Position numbers and translations under genes: made by a program. DNA of 64,000 nt from Polytrichum commune (lineage: Eukaryota; Streptophyta; Polytrichopsida; Polytrichales; Polytrichaceae): assembly GCA_950295325.1 (NCBI GenBank), contig OX485803.1, forward strand, positions 45,957,554 to 46,021,553. Reading direction: 5' to 3'. Under the pieces are notes generated by a model that ran no database searches, had not been told where the DNA came from, and saw nothing but the letters and a program-made list of their open reading frames with translations. Shown in pieces: positions 23,148 to 41,720 of the stretch; within the stretch, counting starts at the first letter, position 1; each line of letters starts with the position of its first letter.

Positions 23148-25856
23148 ATGGTTAGTACTAGGGGACGATCGTACGACACCCCAACAACAACAACCGCATT
23201 TGCATCGGAGGCAACACCAGGTAAGAGGTCGAAGAACGAACCACCAAAACCCGGAAAGACTAAGGAAAATAAATATCAAGGTCTAGGTCCAGAGTCCGAG
23301 CGCGAGAGGGAGAAATCCCCCACCCCACAAAGTCCGGTTAGGGTGGCACGACCCCAACTCATGGCGAATCCTTTGGATGCAATGATGGCTCCTAGAGGGC
23401 CTCCCATTGTAATGCCACAAGCATTAGCGCCAAGGGCGATGCCGAGTTATTTTCCGAAGTTCGGTGGCCTCCCGCATGAGGATCCTTCAACCCACATTGA
23501 ACGATATATTGAGGTAATGTTGGCCAACGTGATAGCCGAAGACACGTATAAACTCGTTTGGTTTTCTACTACGCTAGAGGGTATAGCGTATGAGTGGTAC
23601 CGATCCCACGATGAGGGGACATTTAGGGACTGGCGAGCATTGCAGACGGCATTCCTTAGACAATTTAGACCGGAAATGGGCCAACAAAGCGCACTCGTGG
23701 CGTTAACGAACATGCGGCAAGGCCCATCCGAGGGTATTACATCATACATCCGACGGTTCGAGACGGTGGTAACTCGTTATGTAGGAACCCTTCTCACAAA
23801 TGACACGATTAAATTCTACTTCATACAAGGGTTCAACAAACAAGGTACAATCCGAGAAATTCTTAACTCCAACCCTCAGGATTTGGAAGAAGCTAAAGCC
23901 GAGGCTAGGAGGATCGAAGGTGTAGACAAACAAAATGAGCGGATGTGGAATTGCACTATTGCACCTGTGCCAGCCTTCCTACCCACAACCTACATTCCTC
24001 CCGAGCAGAGTAAGCCTCCTCAGCTGGAGCCATCCCGACCGGATGCATACGCAGTCCACCGAGCGGCCCCGGTTCCTTTGGCTACGAGGCCACCCCCTGA
24101 GCTCTTAGCACTCCCTAGCCCTCCGAGCCACACCACGATCGAGGAGCTAGAACTTAGAGTTAAGAAGGCCAACGACGAGTTGAGGAGCGATGTCATGCAG
24201 TCGCTCAAGACCCTCACAGAGCAGCTAACAATGGCAATCACGTCTAGGCCCTTAGCACAACCAGTTCCGCCGGCCTCGGAGGCGGGTAATTATGGCACCA
24301 ACATTTGGTGTCGTAATTGCAACAAACCTGGCCACAGTAATCAATTTTGCACGGAGCCTAGGTTCACAGGTAACCTAGTAGCCCCACCCCCCCGTCCACA
24401 ACAAGGCCACTCCCAGACTCAAGCCCGGAACAACGGTAAAGGAGTTTGTCCCACTTGCGGCAAGGTTCACATTTTGGGGCCAGGTAAGTGTTGGATCGAG
24501 ACGGGGGTGGTCTGCAACCATTGTGGGGGTAATCACCCGGTCGATAATTGTCGTAGGATTCTCGCGGAGCGACCCTCCCATTACTCTCAGCTGAATCAAC
24601 AACTTCCGGCATTCTTCTATGATAGGAATCAACAGAACCAAGGAGGAATGTCGGTTAATTATCACCAAGGTAACCCACAAAGCAATGGCCAACAAAACTA
24701 CGGTCCACCCAACCACCAAAACCAAGGTAATAGGGGGAACAACTATCAAGGTCCACAAAATTTGTACCCTCAAAACCCCCCAGCCGGTGGTAGGCAAGCC
24801 GACTCGAACTTGGTAGGAATGGTAAGCCAACAGTATGTCCCTCAGATGGGCCGGAACCAACCAAATAGGTTCAACAATGGACCCCAAGTTGCACAACAAG
24901 GTAATACCTTCAATAACTCCCCTAATGAAGGCAACCCATTCTATGGGTACCAAATGAACCAAGGTCAGGCTTATGGTCTTAACGGTCAGTATATCGACAA
25001 CCCTCCTCAACATCTTATGGGGAGTGGACAGGATACTAACCAACAATGGGCGCAAAACATGAATGGGCCTCCAACATCCCAAGGTCCCCTTAACCTTGGT
25101 CATGCACAAACCCAAGACGCGAGGTTCATTGATAACAATAGGGCGAGCACAAGTTGTTCAGCTCCATTCCTTCCTATCCCAAATGATAGTCATAGCAACT
25201 TCATCTCTCACGAGCTAGCCGATTCTTCTTTACGGGCTATCCTGGTTCCCCCTAAAAAACTAAAGCAGAAAATAGACGTGGCAGTGGTCACTAGGGCTCA
25301 GAAGAGGGCACAAACCGTGATGGGTGAAGGTTCCGAGAAGTCGAATGAGTCTGAAAAGTCACCAAAATTCGCAGAACTTCCAGAGTTCTTGCAGAACGCA
25401 GCCCTTAAGGCTAAGGTTCCCACAACTTCCCTAGAGCCTAACCCTGATGACGAACCGGTAGAGGAACCATTACTGGAGGAAGAGGAAGACCTCTTCCGAT
25501 TTGTGGATAGACGAGACACATGGGGCAATGGCCTGCCCGCTAACTTCCCACCGAAACCCCGGCCTAGTCGCGCCTTTAACCCGGCCGAGGACTACGACCT
25601 TTGGTCAGACCTTTCTAGCCTACGAGCCAACATTTCTTTGGCACAACTAATTCAAGTAGCTCCCGCCTTAAGAAAGGAATTCAAGGAAGGAGCCACCCAG
25701 GTTAGGAAGGCTAAAATCCCAACGATGGCAGTTGAGGTCCGAAGAACCCCCCTAGGGGACGAAGGACCAATCGAGGTGGAGGTTGAGATTATGGACAAAA
25801 TAATTCTGAAATGTGGCCCAGAATGCTACCTCAATTCATACACTCCAGAATTCTGA
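23148..25856 (+). CDS. Gypsy-type Gag polyprotein, three zinc knuckles, fused to satellite at its 3' end
   Basis: This is the capsid/nucleocapsid protein of an LTR retrotransposon. I start at the ATG giving MVSTRGRSYD, because the frame upstream lies in the primer-site region. Residues about 100-265 form a Retrotrans_gag-type capsid domain (YFPKFGGLPHEDP, then EWYRSHDEGTFRDWRALQ and FLRQFRPEMGQQSA). Zinc knuckles follow: CX2CX4HX4C at 388-401 (CRNCNKPGHSNQFC), a Cys-rich CPTCGKVH stretch at 434, and CNHCGGNHPVDNC from 456. Residues about 485-650 are very rich in Gln, Asn, Gly and Pro. The C-terminal part is charged. The last 17 codons (from about 25803) are satellite sequence and end at a stop in the first units. 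No protease or RT follows, so pol is lost or displaced. The frame is intact over 902 codons, which suggests a fairly young insertion. Confidence 0.85.
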   Translation: MVSTRGRSYDTPTTTTAFASEATPGKRSKNEPPKPGKTKENKYQGLGPESEREREKSPTPQSPVRVARPQLMANPLDAMMAPRGPPIVMPQALAPRAMPSYFPKFGGLPHEDPSTHIERYIEVMLANVIAEDTYKLVWFSTTLEGIAYEWYRSHDEGTFRDWRALQTAFLRQFRPEMGQQSALVALTNMRQGPSEGITSYIRRFETVVTRYVGTLLTNDTIKFYFIQGFNKQGTIREILNSNPQDLEEAKAEARRIEGVDKQNERMWNCTIAPVPAFLPTTYIPPEQSKPPQLEPSRPDAYAVHRAAPVPLATRPPPELLALPSPPSHTTIEELELRVKKANDELRSDVMQSLKTLTEQLTMAITSRPLAQPVPPASEAGNYGTNIWCRNCNKPGHSNQFCTEPRFTGNLVAPPPRPQQGHSQTQARNNGKGVCPTCGKVHILGPGKCWIETGVVCNHCGGNHPVDNCRRILAERPSHYSQLNQQLPAFFYDRNQQNQGGMSVNYHQGNPQSNGQQNYGPPNHQNQGNRGNNYQGPQNLYPQNPPAGGRQADSNLVGMVSQQYVPQMGRNQPNRFNNGPQVAQQGNTFNNSPNEGNPFYGYQMNQGQAYGLNGQYIDNPPQHLMGSGQDTNQQWAQNMNGPPTSQGPLNLGHAQTQDARFIDNNRASTSCSAPFLPIPNDSHSNFISHELADSSLRAILVPPKKLKQKIDVAVVTRAQKRAQTVMGEGSEKSNESEKSPKFAELPEFLQNAALKAKVPTTSLEPNPDDEPVEEPLLEEEEDLFRFVDRRDTWGNGLPANFPPKPRPSRAFNPAEDYDLWSDLSSLRANISLAQLIQVAPALRKEFKEGATQVRKAKIPTMAVEVRRTPLGDEGPIEVEVEIMDKIILKCGPECYLNSYTPEF

Positions 25857-28400
25857 AATGTGGCCTAGAATGCTACCTCAATTCATACACTTTAGAATTC
25901 TGAAATGTGGCCTAGAATGCTACCTCAATTCATACACTCCAGAATTCTAAAATGTGGCCTAGAATGCTACCTCACTTCATACACTTTAGAATTCTGAAAT
26001 GTGGCCTAGAATGCTACCTCAATTCATACACTCCATAATTCTAAAATGTGGCCTAGAATGCTACCTCACTTCATACACTCCAGAATTCTAAAATGTGGTC
26101 TAGAATGCTACCTCACTTCATACACTTTAGAATTCTGAAATGTGGCCTAGAATGCTACCTCAATTCATACACTCCAGAATTCTAAAATGTGGCCTAGAAT
26201 GCTACCTCAATTCATACACTCCAGAATTCTAAAATGTGGCCTAGAATGCTACCTCACTTCATACACTCCAGAATTCTGAAATGTGGCCTAGAATGCTACC
26301 TCACTTCATACACTTTAGAATTCTAAAATGTGGCCTAGAATGCTACCTCAATTCATACACTCCAGAATTCTAAAATGTGGCCTAGAATGCTACCTCACTT
26401 CATACACTCCCGAATTCTAAAATGTGGCCTAGAATGCTACCTCACTTCATACACTTTAGAATTCTGAAATGTGGCCTAGAATGCTACTCATTTCATACAT
26501 TCCAAAATTCTGAAATGTGGCCTAGAATGCTACCTCAATTCATACACTCCAGAATTCTAAAATGTGGCCTAGAATGCTACCTCACTTCATACACTCCCGA
26601 ATTCTAAAATGTGGCCTAGAATGCTACCTCACTTCATACACTTTAGAATTCTGAAATGTGGCCTAGAATGCTACCTCAATTCATACACTCCAGAATTCTA
26701 AAATGTGGCCTAGAATGCTACTCATTTCATACATTCCAGAATTCTGAAATGTGGCCTAGAATGCTACCTCAATTCATACACTCCAGAATTCTAAAATGTG
26801 GCCTAGAATGCTACCTCATTTCATACACTCCAGAATTCTGAAATGTGGCCTAGAATGCTACCTCACTTCATACACTTTAGAATTATGAAATGTGGCCTAG
26901 AATGCTACCTCACTTCATACACTGTAGAATTCTGAAATGTGGCCTAGAATGCTACCTCACTTCATACACTCCAGAATTCTAAAATGTGGCCTAGAATGCT
27001 ACCTCACTTCATACACTCCCGAATTCTAAAATGTGGCCTAGAATGCTACCTCACTTCATACACTGTAGAATTCTGAAATGTGGCCTAGAATGCTACCTCA
27101 CTTCATACACTCCAGAATTCTAAAATGTGGCCTAGAATGCTACCTCATTTCATACACTCCAGAATTCTGAAATGTGGCCTAGAATGCTACCTCACTTCAT
27201 ACACTTTAGAATTATGAAATGTGGCCTAGAATGCTACCTCACTTCATACACTTTAGAATTCTGAAATGTGGCCTAGAATGCTACCTCAATTTATACACTC
27301 CAGAATTCTAAAATGTGGCCTAGAATGCTACCTCAGTTAATACACTCCAGAATTCTAAAATCTGGCCTAGAATGCTACCTCACTTCATACACTCCAGAAT
27401 TCTAAAATGTGGCCTAGAATGCTACCTCAATTCATACACTCCAGAATTCTAAAATGTGGCCTAGAATGCTACCTCATTTCATACACTCCAGAATTCTAAA
27501 ATGTGGCCTAGAATGCTACCTCAATTCATACACTCCAGAATTCTGAAATGTGGCCTAGAATGCTACCTCAATTCATACACTTTAGAATTCTGAAATGTGG
27601 CCTAGAATGCTACCTCAATTCATACACTTTAGAATTCTAAAATCTGGCCTAGAATGCTACCTCACTTCATACACTCCAGAATTCTAAAATCTGGCCTAGA
27701 ATGCTACCTCACTTCATACACTCCAGAATTCTGAAATGTGGCCTAGAATGCTAGCTCACTTCATACACTCCAGAATTCTAAAATGTGGCCTAGAATGCTA
27801 CCTCACTTCATACACTTTAGAATTCTGAAATGTGGCCTAGAATGCTACCTCAATTCATACACTCCATAATTCTAAAATCTGGCCTAGAATGCTACCTCAC
27901 TTCATACACTCCAGAATTCTAAAATGTGGCCTAGAATGCTACCTGACTTCATACACTTTAGAATTCTGAAATGTGGCCTAGAATGCTACCTCAATTCATA
28001 CACTCCAGAATTCTAAAATCTGGCCTAGAATGCTACCTCACTTCATACACTTTAGAATTCTGAAATGTGGCCTAGAATGCTACCTCAATTCATACACTCC
28101 AGAATTCTAAAATGTGGCCTAGAATGCTACCTCACTTCATACAGTCCAGAATTCTAAAATGTGGCCTAGAATGCTACCTCACTTCATACACTTTAGAATG
28201 CTGAAATGTGGCCTAGAATGCTACCTCAATTCATACACTCCAGAATTCTAAAATGTGGCCTAGAATGCTACCTCACTTCATACACTCCAGAATTCTGAAA
28301 TGTGGCCTAGAATGCTACCTCACTTCATACACTCCAGAATTCTAAAATGTGGCCTAGAATGCTACCTCACTTCATACACTCTAGAATTCTGAAATCTGGC
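25803..28400. repeat. 47-bp satellite array, about 55 units
   Basis: The unit is about GAATTCTGAAATGTGGCCTA plus GAATGCTACCTCAATTCATACACTCCA, shown here in two pieces. TGTGGCC recurs every 47 bp (25813 and 25860 for the first two) through to about 28395. Variation is concentrated at three positions: CTCA(A/C/T)TTCATACA, ACT(CCA/TTA/GTA)GAATT and TCT(G/A)AAATG. Rare units have ATCTGGCC or lose one base (CTACTCATTTC). The 47-bp period is not a multiple of three, and TGA or TAA in GAATTCT(G/A)A closes each frame within 47 codons, so short ORFs here are not genes. The array starts inside the gag reading frame. After 28400 the motif fades through degenerate pieces (ATCTGGCCAAGTGAG, AATGTGGCAATGAGA, GATTTGGCCGAGAGA) to about 28560. 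Confidence 0.97.
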
Positions 28401-29300
28401 CAAGTGAGTAGCATTTACACAAGGATTCAAGCAATCTGAAATGTGGCAATGAGATAAACCCACACAAAAAGATTCTAAAATTCAGAGATTTGGCCGAGAG
28501 ACACACCTGAACTCAAGAATGCAACCTTTGTCAAATGTGGCCGAGAGAGGCCAAACCAAAACTTCCATTTGTTATATAGCATTTGGGATAGGAAGTCGTC
28601 CAATGTGAAAAGGGTGCACGTGGAGGCAAACATCATGGGCTAAATATTTGATTGGATTCCAATAAAGTAATGGGGTGAATCTTGCCTTGAGTGGGGGATG
28701 CGATCTTCAAAAGTATGACTATAATGCCACATGCAACATCTGGTGCAATGACCACAACCTTTGTGCTAATACTTAACACAAAAATCAAACCATTCAAACC
28801 ATGCAAAGTCACTCACAACCTTAGGTACTCTCAAGTACAACTAAAGTAAGCAACCTCCAAAGTATATTCAACCCGTCCACCCAAACCTTTAAAGAGAAAT
28901 CAAATTTGTGGTTACGGCTCTTGGGTCGTGTGTGAAGTAGCCCTTAAATGCACTTAAGTGTTCTTAAATAATTTAGTCCAAAGTGATACATTGCCCCAAG
29001 TAGCTAGGGTACTCCATACAAGTATTCTAAACATAACATATCAATCAAAGTTGAGGACGTGGTTCACACATATAGTCTCTCGGAACCGACAAAGTAGTTG
29101 AACCTATCAACCAACTAGTTGAACATATGTACAAAATTAAAACAATCCTTCAAACTTCAAGAGCAATTGAAAATAAACAACATAAAATGAAGAAGGAGTT
29201 GAATGTGGTTTGCAAAAGGCACAAGGAAATTCAACAAATGAACTTATAAAAAACTCAAATATAGACAATATAAAGGAGGTTCCAAATGCAAGAGGCGCAG
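28401..29300. other. Non-coding DNA after the satellite
   Basis: The first 160 bp hold degenerate satellite-like pieces. The rest has no recognisable feature. It is probably the 3' flank of the minus-strand gene at 29617-33578; no retrotransposon protease or RT motifs resume here, so the gag element does not continue on this side. Confidence 0.45.
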
Positions 29301-29545
29301 TCAAGAACTCGGACTACCATGTCTATCACTATCCTCACCATGCTCGGCCTCTATGTCTAGAAAATCCAAAACTAGTTTGTTGAAAGGTCTGATGGGACTA
29401 GGAGGTGGAGATGGAGCTTCCGCTAACAGATTGGCAAGCTCAGCAGCATACGAAGGGAGCTCGAATGTCTTGGAAGGACTGGAACACATGCCTCGACGAA
29501 GGTCGGCGTTCTCCACTTGCACTCTGAACCCCAAAGACAAAAAAT
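29301..29545 (-). CDS. Possible alternative last exon of the ParB/methyltransferase gene
   Basis: A minus-strand frame begins just after a good acceptor (TTTGGGGTTCAG, about 29546) and reads VQVENADLRRGMCSSPSK... to an acidic tail ending DSDRHGSPSS and a stop at 29301. Its Pro/Ser-rich, acidic composition fits a protein tail. I could not find a donor in the preceding exon that keeps this frame, and that exon reaches its own stop at 29617. It may be an alternative 3' end, a UTR exon or chance. Confidence 0.25.
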
Positions 29546-29616
29546 TAGAAACGAAATGACACAGGAAGATGGAAAAACGACATGAACGTAAAAATGTGAA
29601 AACATATGAAGCAAAC

Positions 29617-32600
29617 TTAGGCACAAAGAAAGCCGAACGCGCGTTTGGTCATCTTTTGAGGCGGATCAAAAATAGAGGTAGACGGTGGGGCAACAGAGCG
29701 AGATGTACGAGCAAGCTGGGGATCGCGCATGGGGACCAGAAGTGCATTGAAAATGATGGGGTCACTCTCTAGTGCCACAATATGCCGCTCAAGGGAGCGA
29801 CAAGCTACAATCGATCCACCTAAAGCAAAGAAAGGTAAAATGTTAGTATGGAAGGTAGTGAAGCAAAAATAACGGAAAATTCAAAGTAAAGGTGATGCCG
29901 AAAAAGAAGGCGTACCTACACCACACTGCCAGTCCATAACAACATCATTCTTGTCGGTGAGAGTAGCGACAAGGATAGAGAAGAAAACATGATGTTTTTC
30001 TCGAGCACCTCTCCAAGGTATCCCATCAGAGCGCATCGCCTGGCTCTTCTCATCGGTGAAGGCATTTAACCATCCATCTCGCTGGAGGTTGTAACCATAC
30101 TCTTGAACGGCCTCCTCCCGCATTTTGAGAACGGAGTTAACTCGAACAAGAACCTTGATGCTGAATTTCCGAGTCTGAAAAAAATCAAACAAATTTCATT
30201 AAACTCGGAAGAAATGAAATGAAACATAAATACACAATCGTATGAAGAGACATAGAGTTGCTTACCACTCCAGAGGGGACCACAGGGGATTGGAGGTCCA
30301 AATCATTCATACCAAACCAATCCTCTGCGACGTAGAAATCATAAGTGTGTGCCCAATCAAAAATAATCTTAAAAACAGAGGAGCTTGCACAATGGGCAAG
30401 GACGAGGACACCATGATCATAGAGGTTAGATTTCGCAAATGCAAATAGACACTCATAGTATGATTCATGGAGCTTGTTCCAAGTAGGAACATCAGTGGAG
30501 ATATTTGGCACAGGCAAATTCTCTGGAATGTCAGCAAAGAGCAGATCGAGGCCCTTGTGAGTTGTAGTCGAGGTGTTCACACAGGAACGACCTGCCCCAA
30601 CCTACAATAAAAAGTTCATGAGAAAAACAGAACAAAGGAAAAATAAAAAAAATCAAAAGGAAAGAAACCAAACAAATGACGAAGGGAAAGATACAAACCT
30701 TGGCTATAAACTCCTGTATGCGGGTATAAGCTGGGAGGGGACCTCCTGCAAGCTCCGAATCGAGCATGAGTTGCACCATGTCCACATTTTCGATGAGGGT
30801 AAGCGTGGTAGGCGACTCCGAAGAGGTGGCACTCGTATCCAAGAGGGCGGCCTTCCTCTTGCGAGGCAAGGAGAGAAAAGAAGTGCCACTGTGAGAAGGA
30901 GCAGCAATAGTTTGTGGACGAAACGCCGAGGGAGTACCAGAGGGGGCAGCCGATGGAAGAACGGAGGGAGTGATGGAAGGACTCCGTAGTACGGTGGGTG
31001 GCTGAACAGGGGTCTTTGAAGCAGACCGAGTGACAACTTGGGAAGATGCCTGAGTGGCGGTATTCTTTCCTCTCTCCTTTCCCTTTGGTGCCTTAGGTGG
31101 AGGAGGAGGAAACTCAACGATGTCGGGCTCCTCAAAGGGAACAATGTTCTCATCGGGAGTACTACTCACTAGGCTGGCAAAAAGAGGCTTCTCCTCCCCA
31201 GGCACAAATCCTCCAGAACAGTCCAAGTACCATCCCCCAGCCTGCAAGTGAGAATGAGGAAACCTGTTTGTCTGCGTAGTCGTGTACACGCAAAGACTAG
31301 AATGGACGTTCACCCAATCCGAGAGGTAGGTGGGCAAGGAAGATGATGCTAAGGCATTCTTAGCAACCAACTCTCTCATGATATACCTACAAAATCCAAA
31401 AATATTTGACAATGAGAAAGAGCATGATATGGAGTGAAAGAATGTAAAAATTAAAGAGCGAAAATGGGGAATAAGTGCATTACCGATAGGCGACACGCTT
31501 GATAGCGAGAACACTCTCCTCGAATTCTAAGAGGTTATCACCTTTGGCAAAGGGAATGTCAGGATTAACGCCGAGGTAAGGCTTGAAGGCTCTGTCCCAA
31601 AGGAGAATCCTCCAGTGATCAACATATTCACGAGGGCGTAAGATAGTCTCTGATGCGTCCCAATCGATATCGATGGTGAGGTCGTCCTGAAATGAATCAA
31701 TCTGGACCGCGACTTCTTTCTCCAACTGAAATGAGGGTGAGAAAGAATGAAATTAGATATGAACCAAGAGGAAAGAAAAAAAAATCAAGAAGCCAATGAA
31801 TGGATATACCTGAGCCCAGAATGACGCCTTGTGAAGCCAGTCGTCTAAGGCCTTCTCTCTCATAGGCTTGTCAACAGGGAACTTGTTCTCCGACCTCTCA
31901 CGAATTGAGGCGTTCCACCAATGAAGCCACTTGGCTTTGAATGCAGCTTCAACCGGACAAGTGACAATTTTTTACAACTTTTCAATTGTCATATCGGTCG
32001 AGGCAAACTCGTTAAAATGCCTGTCGATCTGCGCACGTCCAAATAAAAGAAATAAGTTCAAGAATGCACATAAATAAATGGGTTATTCATATGAAGGAAA
32101 CCATGAAGAAATCCATGAAGAAGAGATACCTCGTGAAAAAATTCCTCCCCATTCTCAGGGTGTGCGACTGAGATGTACTTTTCAAACGTGCGTGCTCGAA
32201 TGCTCTTGATCGTCTTCTCTTGGGCCTTGGTCATGACATTCCAAATCTCTGTAGCAGTTCTCCCGGCAACCGGAGTGGTTTCACGGTAATGCCTCACCGC
32301 AAGGTCAGCTTGAGCCGAAATCTCTCTCTGCGAAAATTGACATTGTCAGCAAATACAATCGGTATGAAATGTAAAATGAAATGCAGCCCGGGAAATAGAG
32401 AAGGCATACCTTGTAAAAGAATTTGACGAAAACATCCGCGGTGAGAGTGTACCAAGTAGGACGACTCTCCTTAATCTTTTCGCATGCTTTGTAGTCAGCA
32501 GGAGATATGAGATCCTTGAACGTCGATAATTCCAACCTCCCAAACGTACGAATTTGAAGGAGCTTGGCAAGAATGTTCGCCTTCACATAATCATGCTCGG

Positions 32601-33578
32601 TAGACCTAAGAGGAAAAAAGAATATGAGAATCGACCAATGAAATGAACGGATGAAATTAACAGAAAGAAAACTATGCTTACCAATTAATGTCGCTCATTG
32701 CGTTGAGGAAGACACCAGTGCATCCCCTAGGGTCGACCACAATACAATCCACCGACACATGCCAACTCTTGTCGTCAGCGTGGTTGTTATTGATGTGCCT
32801 CCACCATGCTGTAAGTCGATGGTTTCCTTCCCACACGAAGAACATCTTGCCACAGAAATGTGCAAGATCCGGATCCTCCTTCAGCTTAACATCGAAATCC
32901 GCGGAAGCCCCTTGCCAGAGAGGACTCCAGGAGGCCATAATGGCAGGGGAAACCGGGAGGTCTACCGGAATGTCATTGAAAACCGAAACGTACATTACCC
33001 GATCTCCCTCTCGGTATCCCATAACAAACTCACATTCCAAACGCTGGACCTCCACCTCGCTGATTGGACGGACAAGTGGAAGGGCTCGCAAGCGGCACAA
33101 AGGAATGGAGAAGCGGGACTTACTAGTGGGCTTAATACGGAGGCGTTGAATAACGCCGTTGGAGTCCTCCTTTTGTGATTTGCGGAGCTCAAGCTCACAC
33201 ACAATAGGATCCGTGTCGGCAACAGCAACGATGTTATCATGGCCAATAGACATCACCTCTCCCTGCATTTGGCCTTGCGAATTAGCACTCTCAACCTGGG
33301 CGGCCTCAACCTCGACCGCGGGGGCAGCAATGACAACGTCTTCTGCAGATTGATGTTGCTCCTCCGCAACTTCAAAAGATTGAGAATCCTAAGAAAATAA
33401 AACCATATGAGACCTTCCCAACGAACAATCAAATAACCAATATCCCAAATAGCTATCAAAATTATCAAAATCCCAGTAGCTATCAAAAAAATAACTCCCA
33501 AATTAGTTTGAACACAAAGTAATACTGTTATCTATTAGGAGGAAAAAGTGCACCAACCACATTCAAAGCCGCCATCAT
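29617..33578 (-). CDS. ParB-like domain + beta-class DNA amino-methyltransferase-like protein, ten exons, one in-frame stop
   Basis: I assemble exons 33578-33558, 33388-32682, 32605-32410, 32327-32130, 32028-31810, 31725-31484, 31386-30699, 30601-30266, 30174-29916 and 29819-29617. All introns are GT-AG and all phases agree, giving 1,022 codons from MMAALNV to FGFLCA. Residues about 90-225 resemble a ParB/Srx-fold domain with the signature FFVWEGNHR (G195-R198) and an IVVDP strand. Residues 528-757 are a Pro/Ser-rich linker with a basic PRKRKAA patch. From 758 comes a methyltransferase-like domain in beta-class order: motif IV position LDLLFADIPE (775-784; usual DPPY altered), a VLVLAHCASSS strand, AEDWFGMNDL, then motif I VMDWQCGVGGS (948-958) followed by IVACRSLERHIVALESD. 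ParB-methylase fusions are familiar in phages and bacterial mobile DNA. Codon 393 (31974-31972) is TAA. Either a recent pseudogene or a sequence error; activity is doubtful given motif IV. Function inferred from motifs only. Confidence 0.62.
31972..31974 (-). other. In-frame TAA in exon 5 of the ParB/methyltransferase gene
   Basis: Exon 5 starts at 32028 with IDRHFNEFASTDMTIEKL, and the nineteenth codon is TAA; the frame then resumes KIVTCPVEAAFKAKWLHWW to a good donor at 31809. Because both sides are clearly coding and no intron can remove it, this is a point nonsense change rather than a misplaced exon boundary. Confidence 0.7.
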
Positions 33579-33748
33579 GATGAGATAAACGTGTCAAAGA
33601 GGTCCTCGAGAATGTAAATAAAACAAATGCCTGATAGAAAATCAAGGCCGAGAGCAAACACATGAGCCATAACCACATGATTTTTCAAACACATAATTCT
33701 GAAACAAGCAAAACATGAATTTACAAGCATCTACCCTGCCACAAAAAA

Positions 33749-33772
33749 AGAGGCCTCGGATCCGAGGCCTCT
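33749..33772. repeat. 24-bp perfect palindrome, copy 1
   Basis: The half-site AGAGGCCTCGGA is followed directly by its own complement, giving a spacer-free palindrome centred on GGATCC. It is preceded by a CACAAAAAA run shared with copy 2. Confidence 0.9.
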
Positions 33773-34012
33773 GCATCCCTGGCTTCAAATGCCGAAATGA
33801 CCTACTTATGAACTTAACAAAACTTGAAAGGCCTAAAGCAAACTGATGAGGCATAACAACCTGATTTCTTAATGGCACCTACTTCTGATGTTAAGCAAAC
33901 AAGATATGCCTAAAGCAAACTTATGTGGCAACACCTTCTGATGTCTCAAGCGCCTGACACTCTGAACTTAAGCTAAACATGATTTGACAAGCACCTCCTC
34001 AGCCACAAAAAA

Positions 34013-34036
34013 AGAGGCCTCGGATCCGAGGCCTCT
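34013..34036. repeat. 24-bp perfect palindrome, copy 2
   Basis: Same half-site AGAGGCCTCGGA and same upstream CACAAAAAA context as copy 1; the downstream flank (CTGCGTCC-TTGGCTTCAA) is also shared, so these two copies moved or duplicated with about 40 bp of flank. Confidence 0.9.
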
Positions 34037-34794
34037 GCGTCCTTGGCTTCAACTTCTGAACTCAACAAAACTTCTAATGTCATAATGGCCTATTACTGAA
34101 CTTAACAAAACTTGAAATGCCTAAAGTAGATTGATGGGGCATAACAACATGATTTTCCAGGCACCTACTTCTGATGTTAAGCAAACAAGAAATGCCGAGA
34201 GCAAACTGATGAGGCTTAACCTCCTAGTTTCTTTATGGCCTACTTCTGAAGATTAACATTACTTGAAATGCCTGAAGCAAACTGATGAGGCATAAACCTT
34301 TGATGTCTAAATGGCCTACTTCTGAACTTAACAAAACTTGAAATCCTAGAAGTAAAGTGATGAGGCATAAACTTCTGCTGTCTTAATGGCCTACTTCTGA
34401 TGTTAAGCAAACAAGAAATGCCGAGAGCAAACTGATGAGGCTTATCCTCCTGCTTTCTAAATGGCCTACTTCTGAACTTAACAAAACTTGATATGCCTAA
34501 AGTAAACTGATGAGGCATAACAACCTGACTGTTCAGGCACCTACTTCTGATGTTAAGCAAACAAGAAATGCCGAGAGCAAACTGATGAGGCTTAACCTCC
34601 TAGTTTCTTAATGGCCTACTTCTGAACTTAACAAAACTTGAAAGGCCTAAAGCAAACTGATGAGGCATAACAACCTGATTTCTTAATGGCACCTACTTCT
34701 GATGTTAAGCAAACAAGATATGCCTAAAGCAAACTTATGTGGCAACACCTTCTGATGTCTCAAGCGCCTACTTTTGAACTTAACATTTCTTGAA

Positions 34795-35290
34795 ATACCG
34801 TGAGCAAACTCGAAACCCTACATCTCACATACTCTATGCCATGAGCAACCCAAGTGAACATTTCATTTAGTCTGAGATAGCAAGAACCTCACCACACTCA
34901 AAACCCTACCTCCCACATAGTCACTAAACCCAAATCAAGACAAGGCCATGAGCAACCCAAGTCCACATTCCATGTGCTTTGAAAATCAAGAACCTCACCT
35001 CACTCCAAACCCTACCTCTCACATTCTCACTCAACCCAAATCATGGCAAGGCCGACAGCAACCCATGTCCACCTTCCATGTACTTTGAAAATCAAGAACC
35101 TCACCTCACTCCAAAGCCTACCTCTCACATTCTCACTCAACCCATTTCAAGCCAAGGCCGAGAGCAACCCATGTCCACCTTCCATGTACTTTGAAATTCA
35201 AGAACCTCCCCTCACTCAAATCGCTACTCCTCACATTCTCAGTAAACCCAAATTCAATTTGATATTCGATGTACTTTGAGAAATCAAGGT
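34795..35290. repeat. About five tandem copies of a ~106-bp repeat
   Basis: The motif ATCAAGAACCTCACCTCACT recurs at about 34877, 34985, 35091 and 35196 with a partial earlier copy near 34800, spacing 105-108 bp. Each unit also carries CTCACATTCTCACTCAACCC and GGCCGAGAGCAACCCA. Frames that stay open across it (34979-35279) are repeat-driven. Confidence 0.85.
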
Positions 35291-35415
35291 AATACAAAGG
35301 CCGACATGTAGTTTTACCCCACCTGGTTCACTTACCCTAAACATACCAAGGCCGATAGCCGTAGTCATGTAGACTAGTCTTTTACCTTGATATCAACAGT
35401 AACCCTCGGCCAAAT

Positions 35416-35439
35416 GGAGGCCTCGGATCCGAGGCCTCC
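35416..35439. repeat. 24-bp perfect palindrome, copy 3
   Basis: The core half-site GAGGCCTCGGA is identical to copies 1 and 2, but the outermost pair is G/C instead of A/T, so pairing is kept although the bases changed. It lies in a different sequence context, 70-100 bp 3' of the minus-strand exon ending at 35507. Confidence 0.9.
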
Positions 35440-35506
35440 TTCCCCCACCCTCTCATTATGCGCACTTCTAAACCAACATAGCATTCCCGAGAGCCCGACA
35501 GCTTAC

Positions 35507-36442
35507 CAGGATTTGGAGTATGCCATCCACTGAAGCCCCAATATCCGCGCCGCTATCTTCCGAGCTCCCGTCCTCTGTCGGCGTTATTTGAGTGCTCCTC
35601 ATGTCACCGAGGTTGACCTGCGCTTTTCCTCTCCCGTGGCGACGCCCTCGCTTCGATGTCTCTTGTGTTCCGCCCACCTTGCTTCGCAACAATCTTGAAG
35701 CAGGGGTCACAATATCCATATTTAGGGTTTCAGTCCCTGGGCCTCCTCCTTCAGCTCTTTCGCGGCCTCCCAGTAAATTGGATTTCAGATCTTCCTCAGC
35801 CGCTTTCCTCTTCGACACCTTCATTTTTTCTCTTCTCTGAATCGTTGGCTGTCCCGACAGCGGTCCTGTCTCTTCTAACGCCTTTTCAGTTTGTTGTGCT
35901 ACCTCCACGTTGTCTTCTTCTTCGTAGCTATTTCCACTCTCTCCACTCACCCCTTCCTCCTATATTTTAGACATAACAATGTTTAGGGCAATGATGACAA
36001 ACCATAATATTTAAGATAAAGTTGTTTCACAATTCAATATTTTCCTCCATTTTAATTGTGTGCTCAGACAACTGAATATATGGAGCACCCGAATAATACG
36101 TACAACACTTGTAGAGTTCGTCTCCTTGCGTGAGTCCTCTTGGATGTTGTCATTTCCCAACTCTTCCACTTCTGCCATTGTCTGTGCTTTACTTCCGTCC
36201 GCCTTCTCTACAATCGGTGATAAAAGGAAAGGCCGTATCTCACAGTCTAGCCTCCACGAAGATTTAGGATGCCTTAAATCCTTGGGCGTTCCACGGTCCT
36301 TGATTGGCGCATTCGTTGACTGTGTCTTTTGTATCCTCACTGTCTTCCTCTTCTTGTCTGTGTAATGTATAGACGATCGCCTCCTCTTCTTCTTCTTTGA
36401 TGGTTCCGCTGTCGGAGGTTGTGAATTGCCTATTTCCTTCAT
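35507..36442 (-). CDS. Two minus-strand exons of an unrecognised nuclear-type protein
   Basis: The first exon is open from ATG 36442 (MKEIGNSQPP) and contains the strong basic cluster KKKKRRRSS and DKKRKTVR, typical nuclear-localisation composition. It can end in phase 0 at a donor in ACAAGTGTT|GTACGT (about 36096). The second exon, 35959-35507, starts after AAAATATAG, keeps the frame (EEGVSGESGNSYEEEDN...), is Glu/Arg/Lys rich, and ends at a strong donor ATCCTG|GTAAGC, also phase 0. The next phase-0 minus-strand acceptor that leads into clear coding sequence is exon 2 of the ParB/methyltransferase gene (33388). These may therefore be alternative 5' exons of that gene, or a separate gene. The ATG lies only 198 bp from the divergent transposase start. 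I recognise no domain. Confidence 0.4.
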
Positions 36443-36640
36443 GTGTTCAGGCCTCCAGCAATTTAGACCCAATCGCTATATTTCCTTTCCACAACCTCAC
36501 CACATCAAACTCGCACATTGGAAAGTGAGTGAGCTTGCATTCTTCTCAATTTATAATTCATGTTTAGGGTTTTCATCTTTCTGACAGTCGTTCCGTTTTT
36601 TCCATTTTTGGCATCATTAATCTGTTCACTATATATCTCT

Positions 36641-39600
36641 ATGGCTTCCTCGTCTTCTGTGCCTTGTTTGTCAGAGATGGCGGAGCTCCGTGCCAATGGC
36701 TTTGGAGTGCCCATCCTCTTTCCTATAGATGCAGACGGATTTGCACATGTCTCTTCCCTCCACCTTAGCATCAGGTTCTCCTTGCAGGATGGTTCAATCT
36801 GGGTCGAACGCGAAATTTATGATCCCCTTACCTCTTTGTTGTCCTTGACCATGCGTGAGAATCGCATTCTTGCCGACAACGGATCATTTGTGTGGAAACT
36901 TCCCGCAGGTAATTACAGAGTCTACGGACTCCCTGAATCTCGGCCACACGTTTCCACCGAGATCCGTACCCCTCCTTATTCTTCCGCTTCCACGTTCAAC
37001 ACCCCTCCCGCCGTTCGTGTGAAGATTGAACCTGGTATTCATACTGTCATACATCTTTCTGATTCATCTGATAGTGATGAGCCCGTTCATTCCACTCCTA
37101 ATATCGTGCCATCTTCATCCTCCTTCAGTCCCCCCTCCTTGTCCCCCCCCCTGTGCACCTTGATCCTATGTGTCATCTTCCCCCATCCCCTACCAAACAC
37201 ACCCCTTCCATTCTTCAATGTCTTCGTTCTCTTGCTTCCATGCCCGGTAAGAAAAACATCCTTAAGAAGCTAGATTATGACACCTTGCGAACTAAAGAGG
37301 TGAATTATCTCCCCCCTCGATTTGATGGTGATCTTATGTTTGTCCTTCCCCCAGTCGGTGTCTCTTCCTCTCATAAGAAGGCCCAATCTATGGACGGCAT
37401 GGACAAACGCTATGACGGCCATGTTTGGACTAAGACCCAGACCACCAATATCACCAATGACATGGACCTTGCTTTTCGCTCCTCCATTTGCGTTGGCCAC
37501 CTCCAGTGCCAAAATCCTCAATGCGATTCCTACAACGTGCTCATCGGACTTCCCCGGTCAATGATACTGATTTCGACGGATTCACCAAGGAGCCATTCCC
37601 CGTTGGTGGACCCTTGCCTTTGGGATCCACTCTAGTGTGCCGGATATGTAAGAACCCTCCCAAATGCATTGCACCATGTCCTGCCAAAATCTTCTACGTC
37701 CACGGCAAAGGCACCACTCAGCGTGCCTGTATTCATCTAGGCAACCATCATCATCCCGTCAAGGTTGGCAACTGCAGAGATAGCCGCAAACGCATCGACG
37801 CCCTGATCGAGGAGCACGTCGAGCGAACGCCCCAAGCCACTCATAGCAAAATCGTCCTCGAAGCCAGCAAGGACCTTGTGGGTGAGTTCCTCCTCCGCAA
37901 TGATAGTGATCCTCATCACATTCTCTCCTTGGAAGAACTTGAACCAGTTTTTGATCGTTGCAAGGAGTTGAATTACCCCCACCTCCGTAACAAGGTTACC
38001 AATTTCAAATACTTACGTAGGTTAGGGGTTATGGATGGAATTGCCAAGCTTCGAGGTGTCAGCAACTAGGCCTATGTCCAGCGTAATCAATTCCCGGGCC
38101 AGGGTGATGATACGGACAAAGTTTTCGTTTTCAAGATGTTCGAAGTCGGCCCTGGTAGTGGGGTCGACTTGGTTAAGCGCATGCAACCTGGTGGGGATCT
38201 CGAGCATGCTTGGATGATGTCTGACCATGTCAAACGCGTCTCCAAGTGGACCACCATGGCCTGCCACGTATACGACGGTACCTACCAGCGCGTCATGACC
38301 ATCGCTTGCTGCGACTTCCAATCCGAAGACAAGGATGCTCAAGTTCTTTTTTGGCATAACCTCAACCACGTCATGGCCCGCCATGGATTCCCCAAGCCCC
38401 ACTTCAAAGGCTTCATGGCCGACAGTGCCCAAGCCAATTGGAATGCCGTGAGGATTGTTTACGGGTCCGGAGACCCAAAGGTTCCCATCGATAGGCGTGA
38501 GAGAACGTGCTACTTCCATTGGACCCAGTCTTTGGAGAAACACACCAAGCTATATATCAAGCATGACTTGCAAGACCAACACAAGCGTCTCTGCCTGCAG
38601 TATCGCGACGCATCCTCTATGCTCGAGGCGGAAACGAGGTACCTCGCCATCAAGGCCTGGTGGGCTTCGTCTAACTGCACCTCAGATGAGGGGCTCAAAC
38701 ACCTTCAGCTTTGGCTGGCCTTCTGGCACTTTCGTTATCGACAATGGGGTGGCTTCATGAAATTGGTGCGTCTTTATTGTTATTGCTTTTTGTTTTGTGT
38801 TTTATCTTTTTTTTCAAGCTTTTCTTATTTCTTGCACACCCTTTCCATTTCACAGGAGAAAATCATGACCGCCGAGGAATTTGCACAAATGCCCAATTGC
38901 AACCTTGCCGAATCCATTCACAACAAATGGCTCCAAGCGTCCGGCAACAAAGGTGGCGATCTATACGTGGCCACTGTGGATGACTATATTCGAGTTTTCC
39001 TCCAAGTTGTGGCGTACCATCAGTTCCTTAAGGGTGGCATTGGGGGCGATGGCCCTAGCAAAGAAGAACTCAAGCTTCGTGCCGCTCAACGTCGTGCTCA
39101 ACGTACTGGTGACCCCGCTGTCCTGCAGAAGGTTCTTCTCGACATGCCTGGCGGAAAAGAATTTTGTACTCGTAGTCCCCACCTTGAGGGTGCCGAGGTC
39201 TTTGGCTCCCAGAAACGCAAGCCTGACACTCCCATTGGAGCTGACGATGAAACCCACCGCCCCGACACCCTCAACTTCTCTCGCCCTCATGTCGCACAGA
39301 GAACCACAAGATCTCAAACTTCACCTTTGCCTACCATCGTCGAGGAGTCCTCCCCGACATTGCTCGAGGTTCCACCACCCCTTCCCACTGGTCTGGATTT
39401 TCGCCGTGTCACTGCTGTCCAAGAATCTGAAGTGGACGAGAAGCTCTGGCATATTGCTCGTGTTCCTTACAATTCCTCAAAGGCATGTTGGGCCATGCAT
39501 GCTGTCACCAAGAAGAAATGCACTGCCAAAATCGTCTCCAATTCCAAGAGCACCCCTGCACCGGCTTACCTTGGAGTTTGGAACTATTACAAATTCACCA

Positions 39601-40313
39601 CACCTAAATCTAAAAAGTTCTTTTTCTGCCCCGACGACATTGAGCGTTGTGTGAAAGGTTCACGTTGCAAGTGGGTCGACAAATTCTCTGCTGACCAAGA
39701 ACGACCTCCGATTCCTCCCGTGTGGCCTGTCAAGCTTGGTACCAACCTCACTCGTCCAGAGATACTAAAGCTTGAAAATGCCGGATTCCAGCTCCCGCAG
39801 AAAGAACGCATCACGCCAACTCGCCTCTTCAACACTTCAGCTCCTCCCCTTGACCTCTCCGGAATAGATGTTCCTGCCAACCCCGACTCTTATCCTTCTT
39901 CCAGGCAGTCCAAGGCTACGAGACGGTCTGCTACTGCACCGTCAACAAAACAAATGCAGATGGTCGCATCTGCACGAGCTATGGACGGGACCATTTTGAA
40001 GGTTACTATGATTCCACGCCCTGGATTTGGTTGCGTGCTCACGTTGCAATCCAAACCTGCACCTACACAATCTATTTACCAACTGACAGTCAGTTCCTTG
40101 CCCGAGTGTAATTGCCCGGCATTCAAGGATATGATATCAAAGTTTGGCCGGAAACGAAATTCGTTCTTGCACTGCAAACACATGTACTTCATATTTGTTA
40201 AGGTGTCTAATGCAGACCTTGAAGTTGATTTGTTCATACACGCCCCTACCTTTAGCTTCAATGAAGTCAAACTCATCCTAGAAGAAGGCCTCTTGACACA
40301 ATCTACTTCCTAG
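36641..40313 (+). pseudogene. SWIM-domain Mutator-like transposase gene, two frameshifts and one stop
   Basis: The protein would bind element ends and catalyse cut-and-paste transposition in the nucleus. The N-terminal part (MASSSSVPCLSE...) lies in one frame to a run of nine C at 37143-37151. A second frame follows to about 37535 (LPPRFDGDLMFVLPP). A third carries the Cys/His region LVCRICKNPPKCIAPC...CIHLGNHHHPVKVG and, after TAG at 38067-38069, the catalytic core: MMSDHVKRVSKWTTMACHVYD, GFMADSAQANWNAVRIVYG (second acidic residue), RERTCYFHWTQSL, WLAFWHFRYRQWGGF, and CNLAESIHNKW (candidate catalytic Glu). A GT-AG intron at 38766-38855 is 90 nt with no stop, so the frame is kept spliced or unspliced. 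A SWIM finger (CNCPAF...CKHMYF, 40106-40190) closes the protein. AATAAA lies near 40400. The mutations are few, so decay is recent or partly sequencing error. Superfamily is inferred from DDE-like order plus SWIM. Confidence 0.68.
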
Positions 40314-40474
40314 AATTCCTCTCAGCCTAGCACTACATTAGGCTATGATATATGTGTCCATTTCTGGACCTCTTGTGCAATCATAATTGATTGATATAAT
40401 AAATTTATAATCTCATGGATTATTTTTATTCATTTCAAAATTTTGTATTATAATGTTTCCTATGTCTATCAACT

Positions 40475-40942
40475 CTATTTCCGTTTTGCATAATTCTTCG
40501 ATGATTCCGAGGGAGGTGGACCCGGTCGAAGCAAGTCAATATAAGAAATTGTTTTATCTTTCATTCGATCCTTCAGTGGACGACGATGCGGCGACAATCC
40601 TCTCATCCTTTCGCGAAATGAAAGAGACTTGGAAGATTCGCCTACCACCTTCACCTCCTGCTCCGTTTCGTTCGGTTTGTCTTCATCCAAATCAACGTCC
40701 TTCTCCGGTACATCTGCCTGCCTCTTTTCATTTTTCTCATATTCTTTCTGCTCCCCCTGCATCCTCCACCTCCATGCTTGTATAGACTGCGAAAATGGAG
40801 TCACCTCGTAGTCATCACTACTTCGATTTCCAGCAACAAACTCAAATTCCGGCGATGGATTAAAGAAAATATGAGGATCTCCTAGACTTCTAATTTCCTT
40901 CTCCCATCCTAGTCCAGCAAACATGTCTCTCTCATCTCCCAT
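40475..40942 (-). CDS. Small unrecognised protein gene, convergent with the transposase
   Basis: The frame runs 155 codons from ATG 40942 (MGDERDMFAGLGWEKEIR) to a stop just after NYAKRK. The first half has folded-looking sequence (SLGDPHIFFNPSPEFEFVAG, QAWRWRMQ). The second half is charged and basic (EKNEKRQADVPEKDVD; SFRERMRGLSPHRRPL). The coding-like amino-acid use, good ATG and length make it better than chance. It ends 162 bp from the transposase stop, tail-to-tail, and AATAAA-like signals for both strands lie between them (near 40400 plus; near 40430 minus). Some two-gene Mutator-like elements carry such an accessory gene, but I have no motif evidence for that here. Confidence 0.45.
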   Translation of the reverse strand: MGDERDMFAGLGWEKEIRSLGDPHIFFNPSPEFEFVAGNRSSDDYEVTPFSQSIQAWRWRMQGEQKEYEKNEKRQADVPEKDVDLDEDKPNETEQEVKVVGESSKSLSFRERMRGLSPHRRPLKDRMKDKTISYIDLLRPGPPPSESSKNYAKRK

Positions 40943-40963
40943 TGTGTGCAAGTGTATATACAA

Positions 40964-41384
40964 TCATGTCGGGTATGAGTTCAATTTATAATCTATTCGG
41001 CCAAAAACGATAATTGCTCCAGTCCAAGCTATAGAGTTGACTCACATATAGGACAAAAATAAAAGTGATGGAATAAAAACGAAGCAAATTGATTATTTTG
41101 ATTGACTCATTCTTCAATTATACCAATCTCATAAAATTCATTTTCATTGATTATTTCTTGTAATCATCATTGGTTTTAATAATTCAACGACCTCACGGTT
41201 TCCAAACTTAATGAGACCATTTCAAATTCAGGGCATTTTCTTAATTTTAGGACCTATACATCCCACGGAAATAGGTCCAAATTTTTTTACCATTTTTTAC
41301 AGATTCTAGAATATTCCAGGTATATTCCTGTCTATTTTTTAAAAACCTTATTTTAGTCTGTCAAGTTTGCTATTTTTATTTCTT
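40964..41384. other. AT-rich non-coding DNA
   Basis: No gene is seen. A transposon end for the transposase block could lie here, but I found no inverted partner for it near 28-36 kb by eye. Confidence 0.4.
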
Positions 41385-41720
41385 CTACGCTCTCCGCTCT
41401 CCAAATCTCCGCTCTACGCTCACATAGGAGTGTCGTCCAGTGAGCACGTGAATCATGCCTTCCGATAGATTGAAGGTAACCTCAAACAGATTGATAGCTT
41501 TGAATGAAAGAAGTGCAAGGGATGGGTGTAGGGTTTCCCAGGCCCTAGCTGTAAGAGCTTTGAGCCCGGGGTGCTTACCTTGAATCCTTCTAAGGATGGT
41601 TAAAAGTCCGCTTTGGCAGTGCATGTTGATCGCAGGGATGCTAGTAGCTACTCTGGTATGGAGATGACTAACTTGCGGTTGGCCTCTTGTTTTGTGCTCG
41701 CATGCGGCTCCGGGCCGTTA
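41385..41720 (-). pseudogene. Unrecognised minus-strand open fragment
   Basis: The minus strand reads TRGQPQVSHLHTRVATSIP, then MHCQSGLLTILRRIQGK at 41624 and HPSLALLSFKAINLFEVTF, to a stop at 41385. The composition is protein-like and the style is reminiscent of retrotransposon ORF pieces, but I cannot name a family. No splice sites were worked out. Confidence 0.22.

What the first reader, a model, noticed from the sequence alone, without database searches (positions are those of the whole stretch)
29617..33578. Plant nuclear gene joining a ParB-like domain to a DNA amino-methyltransferase-like domain
Ten exons with GT-AG introns and mutually consistent phases give a 1,022-codon protein. It has an N-terminal FFVWEGNHR ParB-like signature and a C-terminal region in beta-class methyltransferase order (motif IV position, then motif I DWQCGVGGS). 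ParB plus methylase fusions are known from phages and bacterial mobile DNA; a spliced land-plant version beside transposase genes would be an unusual domesticated or mobile DNA-modification module. The domain calls are by motif only.
Basis: partly seen in the sequence, partly recalled or inferred. Interest (0 to 1): 0.78.

Follow-up and report, generated by a model that had tools for sequence, protein, structure and literature searches.

The report
ParB-methylase-like gene in plant transposons
The gene is one damaged copy of a large family carried by plant DNA transposons; its protein joins a ParB-type fold to a phage/bacterial-type DNA-methyltransferase domain with an altered catalytic motif, and different subfamilies carry different repeated DNA palindromes beside the gene, as if these jumping genes bring their own DNA-marking or anti-silencing system.

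Summary
The exons exist and are conserved, but the window copy has an in-frame TAA in exon 5, and an eleventh exon is likely. Both domain calls stand. The N-terminal exon folds (AF2 pLDDT 85.7) like the ParB/sulfiredoxin superfamily, though no sequence profile finds it. The C-terminus is a beta-class N6_N4 methyltransferase: a D-type relative passes Pfam's cut-off, and profile comparison with 12 phage/prokaryotic ParB-methylases gives 97.9%. Motif IV is D[ILV]P[ED] in 15 of 19 copies and DPPY in none. The gene belongs to a DNA transposon (19.4 kb in one copy; perfect 10-bp target-site duplications in three of four copies read at both ends) with a divergent, MULE-like transposase. Both domains are under purifying selection (dN/dS 0.04-0.18 in pairs with usable dS). 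New here: noncoding arrays beside the gene carry palindromic iterons that differ between subfamilies (2,214 and 1,441 exact sites genome-wide; reversed controls 0) and are better conserved than the repeats around them. Best reading: a transposon-encoded, site-specific DNA-binding protein with a repurposed methyltransferase domain, acting on the element's own DNA as VANC anti-silencing proteins do. Function is untested.

The parts
25802..41438 (.). Extent of the transposon copy in the window; MT-side terminus not found (the 47-bp array abuts a Ty3 gag ORF), transposase-side terminus intact
25802..28401 (.). 47-bp tandem array (about 55 units) on the MT side of the element; a shorter stretch of the same repeat lies there in the C5 copy
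29304..29516 (-). Probable exon 11, conserved acidic C-terminus
29617..29817 (-). Exon 10: second half of motif I and what follows
29914..30174 (-). Exon 9: ends in VVMDWQCGVG (motif I position)
30266..30601 (-). Exon 8: LLFADIPENLPVP (motif IV position, DIPE in place of DPPY)
30699..31385 (-). Exon 7: linker with basic PRKRK (NLS-like, by eye)
31483..31725 (-). Exon 6
31810..32028 (-). Exon 5, with in-frame TAA at 31972-31974 in this copy
32130..32327 (-). Exon 4
32410..32605 (-). Exon 3
32682..33388 (-). Exon 2: ParB/sulfiredoxin-like domain with FFVWEGNHRLTAW
33558..33578 (-). Exon 1 as modelled (MMAALNV); uncertain
33579..35467 (.). Noncoding stretch with tandem repeats between the MT gene and the rest of the element
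33749..33772 (.). 24-bp palindromic iteron, core GCCTCGGATCCGAGGC
34013..34036 (.). 24-bp palindromic iteron
35416..35439 (.). 24-bp palindromic iteron
35468..36475 (-). Conserved two-exon ORF (basic, KKKKRRRSS and RGRRHGRGK); own gene or 5' exons of the MT gene
36557..40313 (+). Divergent transposase gene, MULE-like by eye: FMADSAQANW...CYFHW and C-terminal CxC-CxH
41417..41438 (+). Transposase-side terminus CGCTCACATAGGAGTGTCGTCC

Best explanation
Shown: the gene is the accessory gene of a large plant DNA transposon (19,379 bp in the B2 copy; imperfect terminal inverted repeats; 10-bp target-site duplications). It lies divergently from a transposase, and tandem arrays beside it are full of a palindrome that differs between subfamilies. 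The protein is a ParB/sulfiredoxin-fold domain, a long linker with a basic patch, and a beta-class (permuted) N6_N4 amino-methyltransferase domain, an architecture known from phages. Both domains are under purifying selection. Inferred: the ancestral gene came from a phage or prokaryotic ParB-methylase. In the plant it works as a site-specific DNA-binding protein that loads at the palindromic iterons, perhaps with the ParB fold as a nucleotide-gated clamp (the HR of [DE]GNHR is invariant in 49 sequences), and changes the chromatin or methylation state of the element so that its genes stay expressed, as VANC does for Arabidopsis VANDAL elements. The methyltransferase domain is probably not a standard enzyme, because D[ILV]P[ED] replaces DPPY, and may serve as a DNA- or SAM-binding scaffold. 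Order of certainty: transposon gene (very high), folds (high), iterons as cis sites (likely), this protein as their ligand (moderate), anti-silencing as the outcome (less than even).
For: Multi-copy: at least 200 matches of exon 2, 150 listed, on all seven large contigs. Transposase partner: 84 of 150 listed MT places have a listed transposase within 25 kb upstream on the opposite strand, against a mean of 0.8 and maximum of 5 in 1,000 random placements; also in the one D-type and one E-type element read. Transposition: perfect 10-bp duplications in 3 of 4 copies read at both ends; the same transposase-side terminus, in two variants, in 6 of 7 copies where it was sought. ParB fold: AF2 pLDDT 85.7, pTM 0.81 with 49 sequences; PDB Foldseek ranks 1-43 are sulfiredoxin, ParB, PadC, Noc, KorB, SerK/SbnI or two hypothetical proteins (that the named ones share one superfamily is partly recalled). 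MTase: PF01555 29.9 bits against a cut-off of 26.7 for D-type L043; hhalign 97.9%, E 3.8e-13 over 196 columns; PHROG methyltransferase in 6 of 6 members, best E 1.6e-4. Selection: dN/dS 0.04-0.12 for the ParB-like exon and 0.12-0.18 for exons 8-10, pairs with usable dS. Iterons: A/B core 2,214 sites, C type 652+789, reversed controls 0; the 50 A/B sites listed all lie within 6 kb of an MT exon listed. E type GTGTCTCGG-GA-CCGAGACAC, D type TTGTGCGYTGGCGCACAA. 47 of 47 sites in the B2 element lie in the array. The palindrome is 0.91-0.94 conserved against 0.67-0.72 for flanking repeat bases in three arrays. VANC targets likewise form tandem repeats in noncoding regions and differ between related elements (PMC5735166, abstract and section 9).
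Against: No direct evidence links this protein, rather than the transposase or a host factor, to the palindromes. The match of palindrome to subfamily is not strict: A and B share one, L045 (E type) holds one A/B-like site, and 5 of the 50 listed A/B sites lie beside E-type exons. The ParB-like domain shows no sequence similarity to phage/prokaryotic ParB domains: hhalign 0.2%, no Pfam hit in 15 of 15 members, no PDB sequence hit. Foldseek E-values are weak (best 0.03 in the PDB, 0.0025 in the viral library; none at 0.001) with query TM scores of 0.31-0.42 in PDB ranks 1-43. No methylome, RNA-seq or binding data exist here. B1, a copy 99% identical to B2 over 8 kb, has two stop codons in the MT gene. 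62 of 150 listed MT copies have no listed transposase within 25 kb, partly because both lists stop at 150. One of four copies read at both ends has no target-site duplication.
Confidence: 0.45

Rival explanations
1. Active self-methylation: the domain is a working 6mA or 4mC methyltransferase that marks the palindromes or the element, as phage methylases do against restriction or as bdelloid N4CMT does at transposons.
For: Homology over the catalytic core to phage/prokaryotic ParB-methylases; SAM loop close to canonical in D-type L041 (ILDLFVGTG); purifying selection on exons 8-10; N4CMT precedent (PMC8885841, passages).
Against: Motif IV is DPPY in 0 of 19 copies and has an aromatic fourth residue in 1 of 19 (L042, a damaged copy), against an aromatic in 12 of 12 phage/prokaryotic relatives. 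Changing SPPY to APPA abolishes N4CMT activity (passage). SAM loop altered in A-C (DWQCGVG) and E (DCSTTTG, DCTAATG). GATC occurs in the A/B palindrome only, not in the C, D or E ones.
Confidence: 0.15
2. The palindromic iterons are transposase or host-factor sites (promoter, enhancer, replication or fold-back sites) and the ParB-MT protein does something unrelated, for example helps transposition or target choice.
For: The array lies between divergent genes, a natural control region; the transposase also differs between subfamilies (D type 63% identical to the window's); A/B-like sites also occur beside E-type genes.
Against: No iteron lies in the termini or genes of the B2 element (47 of 47 in the array), and the termini carry a different short repeat (GCTCTCC).
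Confidence: 0.25
3. A captured gene that hitch-hikes without function.
For: Some copies have stop codons, including the window copy and B1; transposons often carry dead captures (recalled).
Against: dN/dS 0.06-0.18 between subfamilies in both domains where dS is usable; the same pairing with a transposase in A/B, C, D and E types.
Confidence: 0.04
4. A host gene family that transposons happened to insert beside.
For: Not every listed MT copy has a listed transposase (62 of 150 lack one within 25 kb).
Against: Both genes lie inside the same termini and target-site duplications in three copies; divergent pairing 84 of 150 against a random maximum of 5.
Confidence: 0.03

Closest known systems
Phage/prokaryotic ParB-N6_N4 methyltransferase fusions (PF02195 + PF01555)
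   Same: Domain order ParB fold then permuted methyltransferase; methyltransferase homologous over 196 columns; fusion reported as frequent in phages (PMC12704722, passages)
   Different: Plant nuclear, spliced, about 500-residue insert, motif IV altered, ParB part not recognisable by sequence, carried by a DNA transposon
VANDAL MULEs and their VANC anti-silencing proteins (Arabidopsis)
   Same: Plant DNA transposon with accessory gene; short motifs in noncoding tandem repeats that vary between related elements (PMC5735166, abstract and section 9)
   Different: VANC has DUF1985/DUF287 domains, not ParB or methyltransferase; the VANC21 motif YAGTATTAC is short and not palindromic; no binding or hypomethylation shown here
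Bdelloid rotifer N4CMT
   Same: Bacterial-type PF01555 amino-methyltransferase established in a eukaryotic nucleus (PMC8885841, passages); weak PDB profile hits include chains titled DNA cytosine-N4 methyltransferase (8s9m, 8s9n, E about 1; that these are N4CMT is recalled)
   Different: N4CMT is a host gene with SPPY and a chromodomain; ours is transposon-borne, multi-copy and lacks an SPPY or DPPY motif
DNMT-bearing retrotransposons of dinoflagellates and charophytes; TET/JBP-bearing fungal DNA transposons
   Same: Mobile elements that carry DNA-modification enzymes (PMC5890265, abstract; PMC12730594, search listing only)
   Different: Other enzyme classes and other element classes

Membership tests
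N6_N4_Mtase (PF01555, beta-class amino-methyltransferase) | Pfam gathering score | tested here: met
   D-type L043 29.9 bits vs 26.7, E 6.7e-7. The window's own subfamily stays below it: 14 bits, E 0.048; 3 of 6 members of A1 match, best E 0.016
N6_N4_Mtase (PF01555, beta-class amino-methyltransferase) | Permuted order: motif IV before motif I, aligned as one domain to true members | tested here: met
   hhalign 97.9%, 196 columns covering both motifs
N6_N4_Mtase (PF01555, beta-class amino-methyltransferase) | Catalytic (D/S/N)PP(Y/F/W) | tested here: not met
   19 copies: DIPE 8, DVPE 3, DLPE 1, DIPD 3, DIPY 1, DILE, DIPK, DMPE 1 each
N6_N4_Mtase (PF01555, beta-class amino-methyltransferase) | Methyl transfer to DNA | not testable with these tools
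   No methylome or assay
ParB_N (PF02195) | Sequence profile match | tested here: not met
   0 of 15 members at E 10; none in the 5 further ParB-like exons scanned; hhalign to 12 phage/prokaryotic ParB domains 0.2%
ParB/sulfiredoxin superfamily | Fold | tested here: met
   AF2 pLDDT 85.7; named PDB Foldseek ranks 1-43 are of this superfamily, probability up to 0.99 but E at best 0.03
ParB/sulfiredoxin superfamily | G-x-x-R nucleotide-contact arginine | tested here: met
   H131 and R132 invariant, G129 and N130 at least 90% in 49 sequences; that it binds nucleotide is inferred
Mutator-like elements (MULE) | 8-11 bp target-site duplication | tested here: met
   10 bp in 3 of 4 copies; range from PMC6446971 (passage)
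Mutator-like elements (MULE) | MULE transposase domain PF10551 | tested here: not met
   No Pfam hit; hhalign to five MULEs of this genome aligns the D...CxxH stretch but at 0.2-0.8%
Mutator-like elements (MULE) | SWIM-type CxC-CxH | tested here: inconclusive
   CNC...HCKH present by eye, no profile match
VANC-like anti-silencing system | Motif in noncoding tandem repeats of the same element, differing between related elements | tested here: met
   the match of motif to subfamily is not strict
VANC-like anti-silencing system | Protein binds the motif and causes hypomethylation | not testable with these tools
   Needs EMSA, ChIP, bisulfite data

The most novel reading that the evidence does not exclude
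Plant transposons captured a phage ParB-methylase and turned it into a ParB/parS-like system: a nucleotide-gated ParB-fold clamp that loads on palindromic iterons inside each element, spreads over it, and keeps it from being silenced, with the methyltransferase domain kept as a non-catalytic or re-tuned DNA module. Protein and palindrome diverge together, largely giving subfamilies separate channels. (Probability lowered from 0.25 to 0.22 on recheck, because 5 of the 50 listed A/B palindromes lie beside E-type genes.)
Probability: 0.22. Interest if true: 0.93.

Novelty: new variant of a known kind. Interest (0 to 1): 0.8.

Why it matters
In a recent survey the commonest eukaryotic ParB-fold protein is sulfiredoxin, and N6_N4 fusions are a phage feature (PMC12704722, passages). 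The bdelloid N4CMT paper reports no eukaryotic homologues of its PF01555 enzyme (PMC8885841, passage). Here a plant genome holds hundreds of diverged copies of both domains in one protein, under selection where tested, inside a mobile element and next to palindromes that can be tested directly. If the protein binds them, this is a second, independent route to transposon anti-silencing in plants beside VANC, with several protein-site pairs ready to compare. If the domain still methylates DNA, it would bring an unrecognised source of a base mark into a plant nucleus.

Tried and rejected
Rejected: single-copy domesticated gene; contamination (elements on all seven large contigs, spliced, target-site duplications); free-riding gene capture (dN/dS); methylation of GATC in the A/B palindrome as a general rule (the C, D and E palindromes lack GATC).

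Led nowhere: the first AF2 run on exon 2 with 15 close copies gave pLDDT 39.8, the second with 49 diverse exons worked. A pattern search of viral contigs with the ParB-like alignment gave 11 stretches and no relative. tblastn of the methyltransferase part against phage records gave 73 records, none covering 80% of the query, best E 6e-4 among the 15 rows shown. Pfam gave nothing over cut-off for the transposases, the upstream ORF and the ParB-like exons scanned. MULE profile comparison was not significant. Eight answered literature searches showed, as far as titles, abstract starts and the passages read go, no ParB-methyltransferase gene in a eukaryotic transposon; 'methyltransferase' occurs 0 times in the MULE review PMC6446971 and in the gene-capture review PMC13317346. 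The library lacks most subscription papers. I recall a Marchantia N4-cytosine methyltransferase (DN4MT1); the three papers found do not hold that name and I could not compare it.

Full report
What was checked. The window is G000:C1:45957554-46021553 of an unnamed 408-Mb assembly with seven large contigs. Reading the minus strand reproduces the ten exons of the finding. Their lengths give 1,022 codons, but exon 5 carries an in-frame TAA at 31972-31974. Most other copies seen have Q there; L027 also has a stop. So this copy is a damaged one. The same exon-wise comparison shows an eleventh exon at 29304-29516 in 10 of 19 other copies.

It is a transposon family. The exon-2 protein has at least 200 matches in its own genome (150 listed). 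A transposase query lists 150 places. 88 of the 150 listed MT places have a listed transposase within 25 kb, and in 84 it lies upstream on the opposite strand, median distance 8.7 kb; 1,000 random placements gave a mean of 0.8 and a maximum of 5. Both lists are capped. The transposase-side end was found in 6 of 7 copies where it was sought (window 41438, B2, L034-L037, in two variants; not in the 1 kb fetched for A2). The MT-side end, GGGAAACTCAAGTATGTGAGCG or a variant, was found in 6 of 8 (B1, B2, A2, and the copies at C3:8.69, C2:56.50 and C1:62.62 Mb; not in the window or at C5:43.38 Mb). Of four copies read at both ends, three have perfect 10-bp duplications (TCAAATGAAC, CCCACCCGAG, CCGAGTTTCT) and one, at C1:62.62 Mb, has none. 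The B2 element measures 19,379 bp. In the window a 47-bp tandem array runs straight into a Ty3 gag ORF at 25802.

The domains. The window's exon 2 gives no Pfam or PDB sequence match. A PF01555 search of the genome (118 matches, some on contigs C10 and C12 that look like bacterial or phage contaminants) exposed more distant subfamilies: D type with the methyltransferase in one exon (L041-L044) and E type (L045, L046). A D-type ParB-like exon query listed 150 of 1,016 first-look candidates, down to 36% identity; an E-type methyltransferase exon listed 150 of 1,115. With 49 ParB-like exons AF2 gives pLDDT 85.7 and pTM 0.81. Foldseek ranks 1-43 in the PDB are sulfiredoxin, ParB, PadC, Noc, KorB, SerK/SbnI and two hypothetical proteins (Atu1540 and a Pyrococcus protein); rank 44 on is unrelated or mixed, and E is never below 0.03. 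In the viral library rank 1 is an uncharacterised Cafeteria roenbergensis virus protein (E 0.0025), rank 3 a 479-residue mycobacteriophage DNA methylase, and many of the named hits are ParB-like, though not all. Yet hhalign to the ParB domains of 12 phage/prokaryotic ParB-methylases gives 0.2%, so the claim rests on structure and the [DE]GNHR motif, not on sequence homology.

The methyltransferase. D-type L043 passes PF01555 (29.9 bits). Ten plant sequences (four D, four A-C, two E) against 12 phage/prokaryotic fusions give 97.9%, E 3.8e-13, 196 columns from motif IV to motif I. Choices behind this: of the six A-C rows in alignment A1 only four entered the script, apparently because rows shared names; the 12 references are L039 plus 11 of the 31 loci (partial matches and two repeats of the same contig were left out); L039 itself comes from contig C12 of G000. 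Profile A1 finds DpnA in the PDB at E 0.0047. Motif IV is D[ILV]P[ED] in 15 of 19 copies; the exceptions are DIPY (L042), DILE (L020), DIPK (L022) and DMPE (L026). All 12 references have an aromatic fourth residue; 10 of 12 have PP, the others being DIPF and DFPY. So a replaced first proline occurs among phages, but an acidic fourth residue was not seen there. I infer weakened or altered catalysis.

Selection. Nei-Gojobori dN/dS for the ParB-like exon is 0.04-0.12 in six pairs among window, A2, B2 and L033 and 0.05-0.09 in three pairs of C copies; for exons 8-10 it is 0.12-0.18 in six pairs, some with dS above 1.5. Most more distant ParB pairs have saturated dS and give no ratio; four between distant types give 0.21-0.33. 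The upstream ORF gives 0.22 and 0.44.

The palindromes. The array beside the gene carries perfect palindromes with core GCCTCGGATCCGAGGC: 3 in the window, 27 in B1, 46 in B2 (at least 16 bp; shuffle expectation for B2 0.15), 2,214 in the genome with 0 for the reversed pattern. Of these only the first 50 sites are listed, all on C1: 45 lie within 6 kb of MT exons, 5 lie beside E-type exons. C-type elements instead have ACCCTCTCGG-AA-CCGAGAGGGT, 652+789 genome-wide, control 0 (first 100 listed). The E-type array read has GTGTCTCGG-GA-CCGAGACAC seven times and the D-type region TTGTGCGYTGGCGCACAA three times exactly and once roughly. A/B, C and E share CTCGG-nn-CCGAG; D does not. The E-type locus L045 also holds one A/B-like site. 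So palindrome type follows gene type largely, not strictly. In B2 47 of 47 sites lie in the array. Within arrays the 24-bp palindrome is better conserved than the repeat around it (0.94/0.67 over 54 sites, 0.94/0.70 over 62, 0.91/0.72 over 16); the seed allowed three mismatches over the central 12 bases, which inflates the centre, but in B2 the ten nearest bases outside the seed are still at least 0.9. No such test was made for the D type.

Interpretation. A protein kept by selection in a transposon, with a ParB fold and a DNA-methyltransferase-like domain, beside repeated palindromes that are themselves conserved, is best read as a site-specific DNA-binding accessory protein acting on its own element. 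The nearest functional parallel is VANC of VANDAL elements, whose targets form tandem repeats in noncoding regions (PMC5735166, abstract and section 9). The nearest architectural parallel is the phage ParB-methylase (PMC12704722, passages). Neither was tested here beyond architecture. The transposase is called MULE-like from the duplication length, a D...CxxH stretch and a CxC-CxH tail; no profile confirms it, and none of the PF10551 places listed is one of the transposase places.

Novelty. TE-borne DNA-modification genes are known (PMC5890265, abstract; PMC12730594, listing), and ParB-N6_N4 fusions are known from phages. I found no report of the combination in a eukaryotic transposon in the searches named in Tried and rejected. 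I rate it a new variant of a known kind.

Noticed in passing
L116 783-1892 (G000:C5:16868501-16876000): A D-type element carries protein-kinase-like exons (PF07714 E 1.7e-5) between the transposase and the ParB-like gene.
   Followed up: partly
L040 1-1845 (contig C10): A PF01555 methyltransferase on a probable bacterial/phage contaminant contig is interrupted by what looks, by eye, like an intein.
   Followed up: no
L039 820-2148 (contig C12): Probable phage contaminant contig in the plant assembly with a true ParB_N + N6_N4_Mtase fusion.
   Followed up: yes
window 35468-36475: Conserved basic two-exon ORF with a strong phase-0 donor at its end; may be the real 5' exons of the MT gene, which would put the iteron array in an intron.
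   Followed up: partly
window 25802-28401: 47-bp tandem array of about 55 units fused directly to a Ty3 gag ORF, marking a rearrangement.
   Followed up: partly
G000:C1:2490251-2497088 and C1:13839478: A/B-type palindromes beside E-type genes: palindrome types may spread between subfamilies.
   Followed up: no
window 18928-19819: 229-bp tandem repeat that looks, by eye, like a piece of retroelement coding sequence.
   Followed up: no
window 55570-57264 and 59341-63704: Glyoxal/galactose-oxidase-like gene (PF07250) and, by eye and Pol_BBD match, a Ty1/copia element.
   Followed up: no
G000 C4: 48 of 150 listed MT copies lie on contig C4, more than on any other contig, though it is only the fourth longest.
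   Followed up: no
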